Assembly (NCBI GenBank): GCA_026989505.1
Contig: JALSJF010000016.1
Span: forward strand, 1 to 33,131
Direction of reading: 5' to 3'
Length of the DNA stretch: 33,131 nt
DNA from: Cyclobacteriaceae bacterium
Lineage (GTDB): Bacteria > Bacteroidota > Bacteroidia > Cytophagales > Cyclobacteriaceae
Position 1 is the first letter of the stretch. Each line of letters begins with the position of its first letter. Made by a program: the position numbers and the translations under genes. The notes beneath the pieces are model-generated. The model searched no databases. It was not told the origin of the DNA and saw nothing but the letters and a program-made list of their open reading frames with translations. Positions 56 to 33,131 of the stretch are shown piece after piece.

Positions 56-1297
56 TTGGCGGGTTCACCCAATAATGGCGCCCCGGCCGCGTACCTGAAT
101 TACATCCTGTTCGACAACCAATTCACCTACCTTTCTTCAGGCTTCCGGGCCATCAGCACGGCTGCATCAGGCAGTTTCGAGCAGCTAGCCATTGCGGATA
201 TACTTATTAATCAGAAAGGATATTTGTATATTTATGTGAGCAACGAAGACATGAGCAACGTAAACGTACATTTTCCTGCCACGCCACAGGCGTGGGATGA
301 TTTAAAGATCACCCACCGCAGGTGCAGGATAGTGCAGATGCCTGCCCCGCCCCGGGCGGGGGATGATTACTATCCCTTTGGGCTAGCTTTTAACTCGTAT
401 CAACGGCCTTCGGAAACCCCGCAAAAGTTCTTATATAATGGTGTTGAAAATGTTAGAGATTTAGGGCTAAACCTTAACATGACATTGTTTAGACCCTATG
501 ATCCTGCTCTGGGAAGATTTACAGGGGTTGACCCATTGGCAGATATTTTTTCTGGGATATCACCTTACTCATTTGCTTATGACAATCCAATATTGTTTGG
601 TGATCCAGATGGATTGGGTCCTATTAAAAACTTCTTTACAAGGTTATTTAATCCTAGAAAGAGATTTATTGTTAAATCTGTTAATGGGAAGAAAGTACTT
701 GTTCATATTGGCAGAAAACCTCGAAAAAGTAAATCTGGTAGAAATAGAGGATCAGAATCTACTCCGCCCCCAGGTAGTAAAACCCAACAAGAGCCACTAT
801 TAGCCGTTTCTCCACAAAAAGCTACAGGGTTTGGTGATTTAGGCAAGCTTAGTATTAGTCAACCAGATTTTAATCCAGCAAAGGTTGATATTCCTGAAGT
901 ACCGAATAATATTATAGCAAGACCTCCTATAGAAAAAGCCCCCCAAGCTAGCCTTAAGCCAGGAGATATTGTTCAAGCAACAGGTAGTAATTTATTTCAT
1001 GGAGGTACTTCACGTTTCAGGAATCGTGCTTACGTTAGACGTAATTTGGTAAATATTTATACCTCTATGCAAGCAAATGATCGCATGATTATCATTATAC
1101 ATGGTGTTTCAAATCTTAAACCATCTTCTAAAAATGCTAGGATTAATGGCACTAATTTTGATCAAGTTGTAAAAAATAGAGCTACGGCTGTAAGGGATCT
1201 TTTAATTGAAATGGGAATTGATCCATCACGCATAGAAATTGGCGGGACAATTTACAGCATTGAACCAGGATACAATATAGAAATTTGGAAAAGATGA
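56..1297 (+). CDS. N-terminally truncated RHS-repeat protein with OmpA-like C-terminal tip (cassette 1)
   Basis: This is the end of an RHS/YD-repeat polymorphic-toxin-type protein of the Bacteroidota class. Residues about 1-75 resemble the GSPNNGAP/YILFD/GYLYIYVSNE region that precedes the core. DDYYPFG (about 102-108) and LGRFTGVDPLA...NPILFGDPDG (about 152-186) mark the RHS core end, where the variable tip begins. The tip has a basic linker (about 195-240) and a last ~100 residues (NRATAVRDLLIEMGIDPSRIEI) resembling the peptidoglycan-binding OmpA C-terminal fold. An in-frame stop at 44-46 lies just before the first usable codon (TTG at 56), so the usual 1,000+ residue YD-repeat body is missing. 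Two 21-nt palindromes are translated in-frame at 275-295 and 341-361. The tip is more AT-rich than the core. It overlaps the next gene by 4 nt. The RHS assignment is secure; the function of the tip and whether it is expressed are not. Confidence 0.75.
   Translation: MAGSPNNGAPAAYLNYILFDNQFTYLSSGFRAISTAASGSFEQLAIADILINQKGYLYIYVSNEDMSNVNVHFPATPQAWDDLKITHRRCRIVQMPAPPRAGDDYYPFGLAFNSYQRPSETPQKFLYNGVENVRDLGLNLNMTLFRPYDPALGRFTGVDPLADIFSGISPYSFAYDNPILFGDPDGLGPIKNFFTRLFNPRKRFIVKSVNGKKVLVHIGRKPRKSKSGRNRGSESTPPPGSKTQQEPLLAVSPQKATGFGDLGKLSISQPDFNPAKVDIPEVPNNIIARPPIEKAPQASLKPGDIVQATGSNLFHGGTSRFRNRAYVRRNLVNIYTSMQANDRMIIIIHGVSNLKPSSKNARINGTNFDQVVKNRATAVRDLLIEMGIDPSRIEIGGTIYSIEPGYNIEIWKR
275..295. repeat. 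21-nt palindromic element, copy 1 (in-frame)
   Basis: The sequence is CCTG, stem CCACGCC, loop ACA, stem GGCGTGG, followed by GATGAT. It adds seven codons (PATPQAW) between VHF and DDLKITH, where related RHS proteins normally read straight through. The stem differs from copies 2 and 3 at one base pair and both arms changed (A-T in place of C-G), so pairing is kept. Confidence 0.8.
341..361. repeat. 21-nt palindromic element, copy 2 (in-frame)
   Basis: The sequence is CCTG, stem CCCCGCC, loop CCG, stem GGCGGGG, followed by GATGAT. It encodes PAPPRAG immediately before DDYYPFG. It has the same length, reading phase and right-hand flank (GATGAT) as copy 1, which begins 66 nt upstream. Confidence 0.8.
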
Positions 1298-1930: not shown

Positions 1931-1951
1931 CCTGCCTGTTCGGCAGACAGG
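1931..1951. repeat. 21-nt palindromic element, intergenic variant
   Basis: This copy starts with CCTGCCTG and ends with CAGACAGG around a TTCGG centre; the arms pair with one mismatch. It has the same 21-nt length and CCTGCC start as the in-frame copies but lies between the DUF922 gene and the second RHS cassette. The flanks (about 1917-1975) contain further imperfectly paired CCTC/GGAGG sequence, so it may be the core of a larger foldback. Confidence 0.55.
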
Positions 1952-1978: not shown

Positions 1979-2915
1979 AGCAACGAAGACATGAGTAACG
2001 TAAACATACATTCTCCTGCCCCGCCCCGGGCGGGGGATGATTATTACCCCTTTGGCCTAACCTATAACTCGTATAAACGCAGTACAGCACTGGAGAATAA
2101 GTTCAAGTTCCAGGGACAGGAGCATATTGATGATCTTGGGTTGAATTGGGTCTCATTTAAATGGAGAAACCATCAGCCGGATATCGGCAGGTTTTTTAAT
2201 GTTGACCCGTTGGCTGAAGATTATTATTATAATAGTCCGTATGCGTTTAGTGAGAATCATGTAACAACTCACATTGAGCTAGAAGGACTTGAGAAGGTTA
2301 GATTTCAAGCAGCAATGTTTACACCATTTGAAAAAGGAAGAACAATAGTAACTCAGCAACGTGGCATCTATCAAGACAATAATATATATAATAAGAATTT
2401 TGCTAATTCACCAGAGGGAGGCAGTACCTATAATAAAGCACGAACAACTGTTGAGACATCAGATGGATCAATGGGGGACACCCAAATGACAGAGACACGT
2501 GATTCAATGGTTGAAGAATTTTTTGATTTGTTCCTTTTCGGAGATATTGATGACTTTGGTTATGAACTTCAGGGGATCGAATACCGAAGATGGCTCAAAG
2601 TTGACTGGTGAGATTGAAGGTTCAAAGTTTGAGGTCAATATTTCGGTTAATGATGAAGAAATGACTTTTACAACCGTTATGAGTGGAGGTGACACAAAAA
2701 AGGCGGTCAGTCTGAAAGTAGCTAATGGCAGTAATGGGTCAGGCAGTTTTACAATTGGCACATTGAAATCCGGACGAGAAAAAGATACCAAATCATCGAC
2801 CACTATTAAAATAAAACATACCGTAGATTCAAATGGCAATGCAGTGTTCAATGTTCATGACTGGGTAAAGCAATATAATCAGGACAAGCAAGAAGATACA
2901 CGAACAAATCAGTAG
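1979..2915 (+). pseudogene. RHS tip cassette 2, N-terminally truncated and frameshifted
   Basis: Homology with cassette 1 begins abruptly at about 1979 (compare 239) and runs through MSNVN, a 21-nt palindrome and DDYYPFGL. The RHS core follows (IGRFFNVDPLAEDYYYNSPYAFSENHV, LEGLE). The first frame (ATG 1991) stops at 2611. The downstream frame continues without interruption from about 2577 to 2915 (GSNTEDGSKLTGEIEGSKFEV and onward). One extra base in the GGGGA run at 2572-2576 would explain the break. The restored tip would be about 307 residues in total, with a polar, beta-rich end of no recognised family. It is either a real pseudogene or a sequencing error. The upstream RHS body is absent. 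The next gene, 1 nt away, is a small membrane protein in the immunity position. Confidence 0.7.
2015..2035. repeat. 21-nt palindromic element, copy 3 (in-frame)
   Basis: This copy is identical to copy 2 (341-361) and encodes PAPPRAG directly before DDYYPFG. The DDLKITH segment that separates copies 1 and 2 in cassette 1 is absent here. VNIHS joins directly to this element, as expected from a 66-nt deletion between two palindromes. Confidence 0.8.
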
Positions 2916-30059: not shown

Positions 30060-30286
30060 TGGTGATCATCACACATCAGCGGGATAAATGTATTGGCTGC
30101 AATTATTGCGTAGAGCTGGCCTACGAACGCTGGCGGATGTCGAAGAAAGATGGTAAATGCACGTTGATTGGCGGGGAAAACCGGAAAGGCTTCTATACAG
30201 TGAAGGTGGGCGATGAGGAATTTGCCGAAAACAAACGTGCGGCCGAAGCTTGCCCGGTGAATATCATTCAGGTGAAAAAAATTTAA
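30059..30286 (+). CDS. Small single-cluster ferredoxin coupled to the U32 protein
   Basis: This 75-residue protein carries DKCIGCNYCVE (C11, C14, C17) and EACPVN (C65), the CxxCxxC...CP pattern of one 4Fe-4S cluster. The second cluster motif of 2[4Fe-4S] ferredoxins is absent. The ATG overlaps the stop of the upstream U32 gene (TGATG), so the two are translated together, consistent with electron supply to that enzyme. The stop TAA is built from the TA target site and the first base of the downstream MITE, so the natural C-terminus may have been cut or altered by the insertion. Confidence 0.88.
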   Translation: MVIITHQRDKCIGCNYCVELAYERWRMSKKDGKCTLIGGENRKGFYTVKVGDEEFAENKRAAEACPVNIIQVKKI

Positions 30287-30462
30287 CCCGGATTATTCTT
30301 ATTCATGACTTTCGTGAATAATGAGGGCAAAATAGTTTACCCTCAAATTTGGGTCATGCTTACTCTTTGATTCATCCTGTATTTTGTGCATAACATGTTG
30401 TTTTACACTATTTTGCAGTTCATCAGCCCTGCGGGTGAAAAATTCATATGAATTTTTCGGGT
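30286..30462 (-). mobile_element. MITE-like miniature inverted-repeat element, copy A (177 bp)
   Basis: The element begins ACCCGGATTATTC and ends with its inverted counterpart ...TTTTTCGGGT. It is flanked by TA on both sides (30284-30285 and 30463-30464). Subterminal hairpins lie at both ends: TTATTCATGA/TCGTGAATAA on the left and a perfect 22-bp palindrome at 30437-30458 on the right. A second inverted pair, GCAAAATAGT (30327-30336) and ACTATTTTGC (30407-30416), lies inside. It is homologous, in the opposite orientation, to copy B at 32652-32908. It has no transposase gene. A TA target suggests mobilisation by an IS630-like transposase elsewhere; that is inference. Confidence 0.8.
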
Positions 30463-31770
30463 TACCTTCGCCTGATCCAGGCCAGCGGTTATGATTTGCC
30501 TGCTGCCCTGGCCCCGGATGCCGATGCCGCTTCCCGGCTTTATGCCGATGACTTTACGGTCATCCATGAAAAAACCACCCGCAGCCTGAACGTCACCCAG
30601 GTTAACGACTATTACCCCTTTGGCGGGGTAATAGCCGGCACGGCCTATGATGATGAGAGCCGACCCGACCAACTTTACAAGTTTAATGGCAATGAGGTTT
30701 TAGAAGGAGAAGGGATACCCGCCACCCTTAACCTGATGAACTTTAACGCCCGCCTCTACAACCCAGCCTTGGGCGTGTTTTTGGCGGTTGACCCGCAGGG
30801 GCAGTTTGCCAGCCCCTATTTGGCGTTTGGGAATAATCCGGTTAACTTTATTGACCCGGACGGGGAGTTGGCGTTTGCACTGCCAATTCTATTCGCGGCC
30901 ATTAAAGCTGGTGTTATCTGGGGAGCATCGATGGCTGCTGTTTCATATATTATAGATACTGCCATATCAGGAAATACATTTAAAGTTGGTGACTTTCTTA
31001 AGTTTACTGTCTTGGGAGGAATAAGTGGTGCCGCAACAGCTGGGGTTGGAAATGTTGTTTCACAGATAGGGGTGCAATTGTTGGGGTCGGCAAGTGGAAT
31101 TGGTGCAGGTTTGGCAAATATTGGTTTTCAGGCTTTAGGTACTACTACAAGCTCGGTAGCAGGGAATTTAGTGACAGGCAACGATGTTTTTTCGTCCTTA
31201 AATATTGGCATAGGGCCATTTATTCTACCTCTTAATAATGGGAGAGTTAGCTTAGACCTCCTGAGCTTAGCACATAATGCTATGTCACTTTACGGCTACA
31301 CAAGAGGATTTTTTGATGTAGCAAATGGTAATGCAAGAGTGTTTTTTGACAAGACCACATTTGGGGCAGTATTTCAGGAAATTGAAGGAAAGTCTGGATA
31401 TATAAGTAGAATACTAACCAGTAAAGAGGGGAAGGCCTATGGACGTGCCAAATTTGGAATATCCTTTTTAACTTCAGATGATAGGTTAAATGCAGCAGCA
31501 GAATCGGCACGCTATTTCTTTGGTAAATCGGGTGAACCCATTGACCCCTCTAATATACATGCTCAAAAGCGATATGCACAAGTTTTGGATGCCAAGAAGG
31601 GAACAATCCACCATGAAGGTGTTCATATATTGCAAGAACGTTTTAGTGGAAATAGACTTTATCGTTTTGGGAACTGGTCAAAAATCTACCCTAATGGATA
31701 TTTTTCGTATCCTTGGGAAATTCAAGCTTATGAAAGAACGTTTTGGATGTTCCAAAGAAGATATAAATAG
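30448..31770 (+). CDS. RHS tip cassette 3 with putative HExxH metallopeptidase toxin
   Basis: The 440-codon frame starts inside the MITE (ATG 30448, centre of its palindrome), so the RHS body upstream is missing. RHS core: YADDFTVIHEKTTRSLNVTQ, VNDYYPFGG, YKFNGNEVLEGEGIP, YNPALGVFLAVDPQGQF and NFIDPDG (about residue 140). An alanine/glycine-rich hydrophobic stretch (about 145-260) follows, then an AT-rich tip. Near the end IHHEGVHILQERF gives HExxH (H389, E390, H393), with E424 in YPWEIQAYE as a possible third zinc ligand. This suggests a zincin-type metallopeptidase effector. The following lipoprotein gene, 9 nt away, is the candidate immunity gene. No signal or secretion domain is left, so it is probably an inactive or recombinational reservoir copy. 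Confidence 0.75.
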   Translation: MNFSGYLRLIQASGYDLPAALAPDADAASRLYADDFTVIHEKTTRSLNVTQVNDYYPFGGVIAGTAYDDESRPDQLYKFNGNEVLEGEGIPATLNLMNFNARLYNPALGVFLAVDPQGQFASPYLAFGNNPVNFIDPDGELAFALPILFAAIKAGVIWGASMAAVSYIIDTAISGNTFKVGDFLKFTVLGGISGAATAGVGNVVSQIGVQLLGSASGIGAGLANIGFQALGTTTSSVAGNLVTGNDVFSSLNIGIGPFILPLNNGRVSLDLLSLAHNAMSLYGYTRGFFDVANGNARVFFDKTTFGAVFQEIEGKSGYISRILTSKEGKAYGRAKFGISFLTSDDRLNAAAESARYFFGKSGEPIDPSNIHAQKRYAQVLDAKKGTIHHEGVHILQERFSGNRLYRFGNWSKIYPNGYFSYPWEIQAYERTFWMFQRRYK

Positions 31771-32427: not shown

Positions 32428-32790
32428 GACTATTTGCAGCTTAGAGGGAATAATGTCACTTGGCTTTTTCTTATGCAAAACCACCCGCAGCCTGAACGTC
32501 ACCCAGGTTAACGACTATTACCCCTTTGGCGGGGTAATAGAAGGCACCGCTTACAACGATGCAAGCTGCCAGGCCCAGCTGTATAAATTTAATGGCAACG
32601 AGGTGTTGGAAGGCGAAGGAATACCCACCACCCTTAACCTGATGAACTTTAACCCGAAAAATTCATATGAATTTTTCGCCCGCAGGGCTGATGAACTGCA
32701 AAATAGTGTAAAACATCATGTTATGCACAAAACATAGCATGAACCCAAGATTAAGCATGACCCAAATTTGAGAGTAAACTATTTTGCACT

Positions 32791-32836
32791 CATCAGGTCC
32801 TTAGACTCCGCTGAATCGGAGTCTAAGGACCTGATG
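32791..32836. repeat. Perfect 20-bp stem hairpin inside MITE copy B
   Basis: Arms 32791-32810 and 32817-32836 are exact reverse complements around the loop CTGAAT. The sequence is absent from copy A. No T-run follows and no gene stop precedes it closely, so it is not a typical intrinsic terminator. Confidence 0.85.
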
Positions 32837-32877
32837 TAATTAACTGACAAACAATCGTTTGTCGGTTAATTTACATC
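32833..32877. repeat. Second hairpin inside MITE copy B
   Basis: The core arms 32838-32852 and 32857-32871 pair over 15 bp with one T-G wobble around the loop AATC. A one-base bulge extends pairing to GATGT (32833-32837) with ACATC (32873-32877). It is directly adjacent to the 20-bp hairpin and also absent from copy A. Confidence 0.75.
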
Positions 32878-32930
32878 ATTATTCATGATTTTCATGAATA
32901 ATCCGGGTTAACGCCCGCCTCTACAACCCC

Positions 32931-32962
32931 GCCTCGCTTTCGCGTAGCTTCAGCGAAGCAAA
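32931..32962. repeat. 32-nt foldback insertion in RHS core
   Basis: Compared with cassette 3 (CCAGCCTTGGGCGTG), 32 nt are inserted after CCCCGCC, containing CTTTCGCG and CGAAGCAAAG arms around TAGCTTCAG. Unlike the 21-nt elements its length is not a multiple of three, so it shifts the reading frame. Boundaries are uncertain by 1-2 nt because of C/CC ambiguity. Confidence 0.65.
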
Positions 32963-33041
32963 GCCCTGGGCGTGTTTTTGGCGGTGGACCCTATGGTTGC
33001 CTCCTTTGCCCGGCTAACCCCTTATAACTTTGGCTTTAATA

Positions 33042-33062
33042 CCTGCCCGCCAGGAAGGCGGG
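33042..33062. repeat. 21-nt palindromic element, copy 4 (in-frame)
   Basis: The sequence is CCTG, stem CCCGCC, loop AGGAA, stem GGCGGG. It falls between FGFN and DPTLLSDPNG of an RHS core, with the first codon split (ACC). It is again exactly 21 nt long, so the flanking frame is kept, though in a different codon phase from copies 1-3. Confidence 0.75.
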
Positions 33063-33131
33063 ACCCTACCCTGCTAAGCGACCCGAATGGGGAGTGCCCG
33101 GTGTGTATTGGGGCATTAATTGGCCTGGTTT

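What the first reader, a model, noticed from the sequence alone, without database searches (positions are those of the whole stretch)
275..361. 21-nt palindromic elements inserted in-frame in RHS genes, with a compensatory stem change
Copies at 275-295, 341-361, 2015-2035 and 33042-33062 (plus a variant at 1931-1951) are all exactly 21 nt. They start with CCTGCC and form a 6-7 bp stem with a 3-5 nt loop. Four are translated as seven extra residues in RHS proteins without shifting the frame. Copy 1 has A-T where copies 2 and 3 have C-G, with both arms changed, so stem pairing seems to be under selection. Known parallels are the Rickettsia palindromic elements, which also sit in-frame in proteins; I know of no named family like this in Bacteroidota RHS genes. 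A length divisible by three plus a conserved fold suggests a small mobile or recombinogenic repeat.
Basis: partly seen in the sequence, partly recalled or inferred. Interest (0 to 1): 0.8.

Follow-up and report, generated by a model that had tools for sequence, protein, structure and literature searches.

The report
Tiny hairpin insertions in RHS genes
Hairpin-forming DNA pieces exactly 21 letters long have been inserted into RHS gene fragments of this bacterium, adding seven amino acids without shifting the reading frame, and similar pieces sit inside ordinary genes of a distant relative, which suggests an unusually small kind of spreading DNA.

Summary
The observation largely holds. Copies 275-295, 341-361 and 2015-2035 are CCTG plus a 17-nt hairpin (7-bp stem, 3-nt loop). 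They are genuine insertions: of 23 RHS homologues of other genomes covering each site, 12 (site 1) and 17 (site 2) lack exactly seven residues. A fourth strict copy lies on contig C136, at site 1 of a diverged RHS fragment.

Corrections: only these four strict copies were found in the genome, all in RHS fragments. Copy 2015 looks like a fusion of the two sites, not an independent insertion. Copy 33042 lies in a broken RHS fragment beside 259-nt and 32-nt inserts. 1931-1951 is a different, weaker palindrome outside the RHS frame. 'In-frame' follows from the length, as other hairpin inserts in these genes shift frame. The compensatory change is one event in this genome.

A same-order genome of another family (G038) carries such 21-mers in many copies, several inside long open frames (class II ribonucleotide reductase, acyl-CoA dehydrogenase, T9SS sorting tails). 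Best reading: minimal REP/RPE-like elements with a CCTG tag, moved in trans and nearly inactive in this genome. The enzyme is not identified; the genome's one Y1 transposase shows no link to them.

The parts
275..295 (+). 21-nt element, copy 1, at RHS site 1 (between ...VHF and DDLK...)
   Evidence: CCTG + 7-bp stem + 3-nt loop; 20 of 23 homologues lack 6-9 residues here, 12 exactly 7
341..361 (+). 21-nt element, copy 2, at RHS site 2 (before DDYYPFGL)
   Evidence: Same build; 17 of 23 homologues lack exactly 7 residues here
2015..2035 (+). 21-nt element, copy 3, letters of copy 2; read as fusion of site 1 upstream with site 2 downstream
   Evidence: 31 of 34 nt upstream like site 1, 42 of 60 nt downstream like site 2; the other pairings 11 of 34 and 15 of 45
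33042..33062 (+). 21-nt element, copy 4 (6-bp stem, 5-nt loop), in a broken RHS fragment
   Evidence: 18 of 21 letters like a 21-mer with 12 copies in G038
1931..1951 (+). Related but different 21-nt palindrome CCTGCCTGTTCGGCAGACAGG, outside an RHS frame
   Evidence: Weaker, other fold; same 21-mer 3 times in G038
56..1297 (+). RHS fragment (core + C-terminal part, 5' part missing) holding copies 1 and 2
   Evidence: TIGR03696, 44.5 bits; open frame 416 aa
1991..2611 (+). RHS fragment holding copy 3
   Evidence: TIGR03696, 40.5 bits
30448..31770 (+). RHS paralogue without a 21-nt element at either site
   Evidence: TIGR03696, 48.8 bits; translation
32486..33131 (+). Broken RHS fragment, close to the 30448 paralogue, holding three palindromic inserts
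   Evidence: Stops in the frame; alignment with the paralogue
32654..32912 (.). 259-nt composite palindromic insert with TTAAC at both ends (the aligner places it 2 nt further right)
   Evidence: pieces of it recur in other sampled stretches
32930..32961 (.). 32-nt hairpin insert, frame-shifting

Best explanation
The 21-mers are very small mobile palindromic elements: the tetranucleotide CCTG directly at the 5' foot of a 17-nt hairpin. They work like minimal REP/RPE elements. SHOWN: net insertions of 21 nt at two RHS sites; the same 21-mer at the homologous site of a diverged RHS fragment; stem letters that change on both sides in step; sister 21-mers in many copies in a same-order genome, several inside long open frames in different phases and both orientations. 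READ FROM THE SEQUENCE: the four strict copies all stand just before GATGAT; no consistent target duplication; no stop codon inside the element in any of its six frames. INFERRED: the hairpin is recognised as single-stranded DNA and moved in trans by a Y1/HUH enzyme that reads CCTG as REP enzymes read GTAG. INFERRED: in this genome the family is inactive or came in with RHS modules. Copies keep the frame because the element is 21 nt long, and RHS fragments tolerate additions. A deletion between the two neighbouring copies (45 nt apart) in a related gene made the fused copy at 2015.
For: Homologues without the seven residues: 12 and 17 of 23 exactly 7, and residues 74-80 and 95-102 (plus 191) are the only ones of 200 gapped in over 30% of rows. 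Genome-wide 4 matches, reversed control 0. C136 has the 21-mer of copy 1 at site 1 in flanks identical at only 31 of 60 and 24 of 45 nt, its site 2 empty. Free pairs complementary in 4 of 4 here and 15 of 15 in G038, against 4 of 36 listed matches of other genomes in the phylum draw. G038: 11 + 4 strict copies, 12 copies of a relative of copy 4, reversed controls 0; 9 of 15 strict copies in open frames of 450 aa or more. Fusion copy. A tetranucleotide at the hairpin foot is what REP/IS200 Y1 enzymes use (PMC6006769, passages).
Against: Only 4 strict copies in this genome, all in RHS fragments; none paired in 36 same-family relatives. The one Y1 gene of the genome has other flanking hairpins, found only at its two flanks, and its motif resembles the paper's subclass 1.2, listed there as without REPs. 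No Y1 gene of G038 has the CCTG-CCCCGNC hairpin listed beside it. GATGAT also encodes a conserved Asp-Asp, so target choice may be coincidence; G038 copies have other flanks. Copy 2 has GATG on both sides, and two G038 copies of the 1931 type have CATTG on both sides. In the sampled stretches of this genome CCTG is not the commonest tag of perfect 7-3-7 hairpins (ATTA 10, CCTG 6). 6 of 15 strict G038 copies lie in open frames of under 200 aa only.
Confidence: 0.55

Rival explanations
1. One old insertion per site, inherited: the element entered an ancestral RHS gene once at each site, and copying and recombination of RHS cassettes spread it. There is no mobile family in this genome.
For: All 4 strict copies are at two homologous RHS sites; copy 3 is explained by recombination alone; few copies.
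Against: The C136 and copy-1 elements are identical over 21 nt while flanks agree at only 31 of 60 and 24 of 45 nt; C136 lacks the site-2 copy; sister 21-mers are dispersed in G038.
Confidence: 0.27
2. The elements have no transposase: hairpins arise or spread by replication errors such as template switching between palindromes, as one of several hairpin types decorating decaying RHS genes.
For: Hairpin inserts of 32 nt, about 25 nt and 259 nt also lie in these RHS fragments; no linked Y1 gene found.
Against: Exactly 21 nt with the same CCTG tag each time, and exact multi-copy 21-mers in G038, suggest copying of a defined unit.
Confidence: 0.14
3. The seven residues are an ordinary protein feature (variable loop) and the palindrome is a by-product of GC-rich codons.
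For: Copies 1-3 lie in open frames.
Against: Homologues lack the residues; the hosts are 5'-truncated or broken fragments; sister elements are read in other phases and in antisense, giving unrelated peptides; the loop letters vary while stems stay paired.
Confidence: 0.04

Closest known systems
Rickettsia palindromic elements (RPE-4/RPE-6, and the longer RPE-1)
   Same: Small palindromes in frame inside protein genes (PMC3733652, passages and section 15).
   Different: R. conorii RPEs end with CGTC according to that paper; here CCTG, 21 nt and seven residues, and another lineage.
REP elements (GTAG-tagged) and their RAYT/TnpA-REP enzymes
   Same: A tetranucleotide at the 5' foot of a hairpin; REPs are 21-65 nt (PMC6006769, passages); some lie inside genes (PMC3733652).
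   Different: Tag CCTG instead of GTAG; no linked Y1 gene found; few copies in this genome.
Small dispersed repeats of cyanobacteria (SDR; Elhai et al. 2008)
   Same: Very small mobile repeats (title seen only in a reference list; the rest is recalled).
   Different: Not compared here; recalled as about 24 nt and mostly outside genes.
MITEs
   Same: Non-autonomous, palindromic, dispersed.
   Different: 70-300 bp with 15-30 bp terminal inverted repeats (PMC3733652, passages); here 21 nt. The neighbouring 259-nt insert resembles a MITE more.

Membership tests
Rickettsia palindromic element | Palindrome inserted in frame inside protein genes | tested here: met
   expression of the fragments not shown
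Rickettsia palindromic element | CGTC tag at one end (as PMC3733652 states for R. conorii) | tested here: not met
   CCTG in all four strict copies
GTAG REP | GTAG (GT[AG]G) at the foot of the hairpin | tested here: not met
   CCTG instead
GTAG REP | Tetranucleotide directly at the 5' foot of a short hairpin | tested here: met
GTAG REP | Cognate Y1 (RAYT) gene flanked by the same repeat | tested here: not met
   G000: 1 Y1 gene, other hairpins. G038: none beside the CCCCGNC type; the 1931-type 21-mer lies near 2 of 7 Y1 genes
GTAG REP | High copy number in the genome | tested here: not met
   4 strict copies; met in G038 for sister types
MITE | Terminal inverted repeats and target-site duplication | tested here: not met
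   Net gain is 7 residues in most homologue comparisons; no consistent flanking repeat, though copy 2 has GATG on both sides
Cyanobacterial SDR | Sequence membership | not tested
   No SDR sequence at hand

The most novel reading that the evidence does not exclude
A family of CCTG-tagged 21-nt palindromes in this lineage, among the smallest protein-coding mobile repeats, whose length and lack of stop codons let them settle in either direction inside working genes, including a class II ribonucleotide reductase and T9SS sorting tails, and which a still unidentified single-strand transposase moves.
Probability: 0.4. Interest if true: 0.72.

Novelty: new variant of a known kind. Interest (0 to 1): 0.52.

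Why it matters
In-frame palindromic inserts are best known from Rickettsia. Seven-residue versions in an unrelated lineage, one of them sitting in a ribonucleotide reductase frame, would give a small, testable system for how hairpin DNA enters coding genes and how proteins accept arbitrary peptides, and a handle on the enzyme behind such elements. The window itself holds only a residue of this: a few copies in decaying RHS fragments.

Tried and rejected
Spread in RHS genes at large: not found. The RHS core search of the own genome gave 5 matches, 3 over the cut-off. The genome-contig scan (pattern followed by GATGAT) gave 2 matches, in a Verrucomicrobiales and a Zoogloea record, GC 0.65 and 0.62, neither in an RHS context.

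Spread over the phylum: 29 of 395 genomes (own included) matched a looser pattern; of 36 listed matches outside the own genome 4 pair at both free positions (G357 two, G360, G383), so most look like chance; the control pattern also matched in several genomes.

More copies in the own genome: 3 mismatches gave 25 matches against 6 for the control. The covariance model gave 15 matches up to E = 10, but only 150 of 1519 candidates were scored. The best new ones, C104 (L015) and C137 (L021), lie in contigs with tRNA genes and are followed by tRNA T-arm-like sequence; ARAGORN calls no tRNA over either. C137 is a perfect CCTG-tagged hairpin; whether it is an element stays open. Both are left out of the four.

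Link to Y1 transposases: not found for the window's type. Plasmid collection, 261 bases around copies 1-2, distant mode: no match.

Limits. Tag statistics rest on the window plus 20 stretches of G000 and on 20 stretches of G038, mostly from contigs chosen because they had pattern matches or a Y1 gene, so fold values are inflated; of 6 CCTG hairpins in the G000 sample 4 are the known copies, 1 is C137, 1 looks like chance. The 8 rows behind the pair counts were picked by me from pattern matches; 15 of 500 shuffles reach the observed score. A first alignment with wrong strands was dropped. Homologues examined: the 29 loci returned, of 39 other genomes with a match. In one search, 3 of 23 rows at site 1 (0, -1, 3) and 6 of 23 at site 2 (1, 2, 3, 3, 14, 14) show no net gap of 6-9 residues. 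Ribonucleotide reductase: the solved homologue is about as long in that variable region, so this is an element in an open frame, not a clean empty site. Acyl-CoA dehydrogenase: the three alignments shown are shorter by 7 (AidB), about 6 and 2 residues. T9SS tail: of 4 paralogues without the insert, 1 lacks exactly seven residues.

Full report
Where it lies. The window is the whole contig C16 of a 3.51-Mb draft genome of 273 contigs (G000). RHS fragments stand at both ends: 56-1297, 1991-2611 and 30448-31770 (all TIGR03696) and the broken fragment 32486-33131. No call names the organism; that it belongs to Bacteroidota is an inference, helped by T9SS sorting domains in a same-order genome.

The observation. 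The five 21-mers stand at the stated places. Copies 275, 341 and 2015 are CCTG followed by a 17-nt hairpin (7-bp stem, 3-nt loop); copy 33042 is CCTG with a 6-bp stem and 5-nt loop; 1931 folds more weakly and otherwise. Genome-wide, CCTGCCNNGCCNNNGGCNNGG has 4 matches (275, 341, 2015 and C136:18054) and none for the reversed control; both unconstrained pairs are complementary in 4 of 4. A covariance model added no convincing member, though only 150 of 1519 candidates were scored. GC-rich hairpins as such are hardly above chance in the window (19 against 4 to 17 in 10 shuffles).

They are insertions. The 200-residue RHS query with copies 1 and 2 was compared with 29 loci of other genomes and the C136 stretch (30 rows). 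Of 23 homologues covering site 1, 12 lack exactly 7 residues and 20 lack 6 to 9; of 23 covering site 2, 17 lack exactly 7. Residues 74-80 and 95-102, and one other (191, 0.33), are the only ones gapped in more than 30% of rows. The best homologue (L106, 51% identical) is clean at both sites. In the window, the paralogue at 30448 has neither insert.

How many events. C136 carries the 21-mer of copy 1 at the same site in flanks identical at only 31 of 60 and 24 of 45 nt, and its site 2 is empty. Copy 2015 has the upstream flank of site 1 (31 of 34 nt) and the downstream flank of site 2 (42 of 60 nt); the other pairings give 11 of 34 and 15 of 45. The simplest account is a deletion between two elements 45 nt apart, so the repeat recombines. 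All four strict copies precede GATGAT, which also encodes a conserved Asp-Asp, so target choice and coincidence cannot be told apart.

Frame. The element is 21 nt long and, read by eye, holds no stop in any of six frames, so it keeps whatever frame it enters. Other hairpin inserts in these genes do not: against the 30448 paralogue, the 32486 fragment has inserts of 259 and 32 nt, and C136 has an extra hairpin of about 25 nt that shifts frame (read). Copy 33042 sits in this wreck. In-frame is explained by length and tolerance; selection on the frame is not shown.

Stem covariation. Within this genome there is one both-sided change (A-T against C-G). With G038, of another family in the same order, a second pair changes on both sides. 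On 7 distinct sequences 98% of cells pair, two pairs have both-sided changes, and 15 of 500 shuffles reach this. A less biased test leaves these two pairs free in the pattern: 15 of 15 matches in G038 and 4 of 4 here pair at both, against 4 of 36 listed matches of other genomes in the phylum draw. These are copies of a few types, not 15 independent events.

The relatives. In G038, CCTGCCCCGACAAAGTCGGGG has 11 exact copies and the GCC-stem type 4; CCTGTCCGCCAGACAGGCGGG, 18 of 21 letters like copy 33042, has 12; the exact 1931 21-mer occurs 3 times, twice near Y1 genes. Of the 15 strict copies, 9 lie in open frames of 450 aa or more, in both orientations, and 6 do not; of 11 distinct places of the second type seen, 6 do. 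Domain searches of ten such proteins found class II ribonucleotide reductase, AidB-like acyl-CoA dehydrogenase, OstA/LptA-like, TPR, two propeller sensor proteins and a T9SS tail; 3 of 10 had no family. One of four T9SS-tail paralogues lacks exactly the seven residues. Of the three solved acyl-CoA dehydrogenases shown, AidB is shorter by 7, the others by about 6 and 2. The ribonucleotide reductase site is in a region of variable length. Close relatives of the window's genome lack the element: of 36 of the same genus or family, 3 matched the pattern once each, none a paired hairpin.

Mechanism. A tetranucleotide at the 5' foot of a short hairpin is what IS200/REP-type Y1 enzymes read (PMC6006769, passages), and lack of a consistent target duplication fits. 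But the one Y1 gene of this genome has other flanking hairpins, present only at its two flanks, with a motif like that paper's subclass 1.2, listed as without REPs; and no Y1 gene of G038 has the CCTG-CCCCGNC type listed beside it. The enzyme is an inference. Scarcity here suggests that the family is inactive or came in with RHS modules.

What is known. PMC3733652 (passages; section 15) describes GTAG- and CGTC-tagged palindromes, some in frame inside genes, Rickettsia elements among them, and names Bacteroidetes among the phyla with CGTC repeats; no word beginning with CCTG is in its main text. Literature searches (listings) in the open-licence library showed no paper on a CCTG-tagged 21-nt family; most subscription papers are not held. 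I call it a new variant of a known kind: it works like RPE/REP elements but is not filed as a member of either, because the tags and the transposase association were tested and not met.

Noticed in passing
window 32654-32912 and about 30286-30465: A 259-nt composite of palindromes with TTAAC at both ends interrupts an RHS gene; pieces of it recur in several of the 20 sampled stretches of the genome and upstream of the 30448 RHS fragment. Looks like a MITE family.
   Followed up: partly
window 32930-32961: A 32-nt hairpin insert that shifts the frame of the RHS fragment, absent from the 30448 paralogue.
   Followed up: partly
L004 about 1460-1492 (contig C136): An extra hairpin of about 25 nt upstream of the C136 element that changes the reading frame of the RHS fragment.
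   Followed up: partly
L049 (G038, contig C71), element at 558 on the - strand: A CCTG 21-mer lies in the N-terminal domain region of a class II ribonucleotide reductase frame of at least 598 residues.
   Followed up: partly
L037 and L039 (G038): The exact 21-mer of window 1931-1951 lies near two Y1 transposase genes, nested in a larger palindrome with CATTG on both sides.
   Followed up: partly
L069 1-500 and L072 190-450 (G000): Tandem repeats of tRNA-like sequence (T-arm-like GGTTCGAATCC or a variant, hairpin where a long variable arm would be) near tRNA genes, not called by ARAGORN.
   Followed up: no
L038 (G000, contig C2): A Y1 transposase gene between two direct repeats, each with two hairpins, that occur nowhere else in the genome.
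   Followed up: partly
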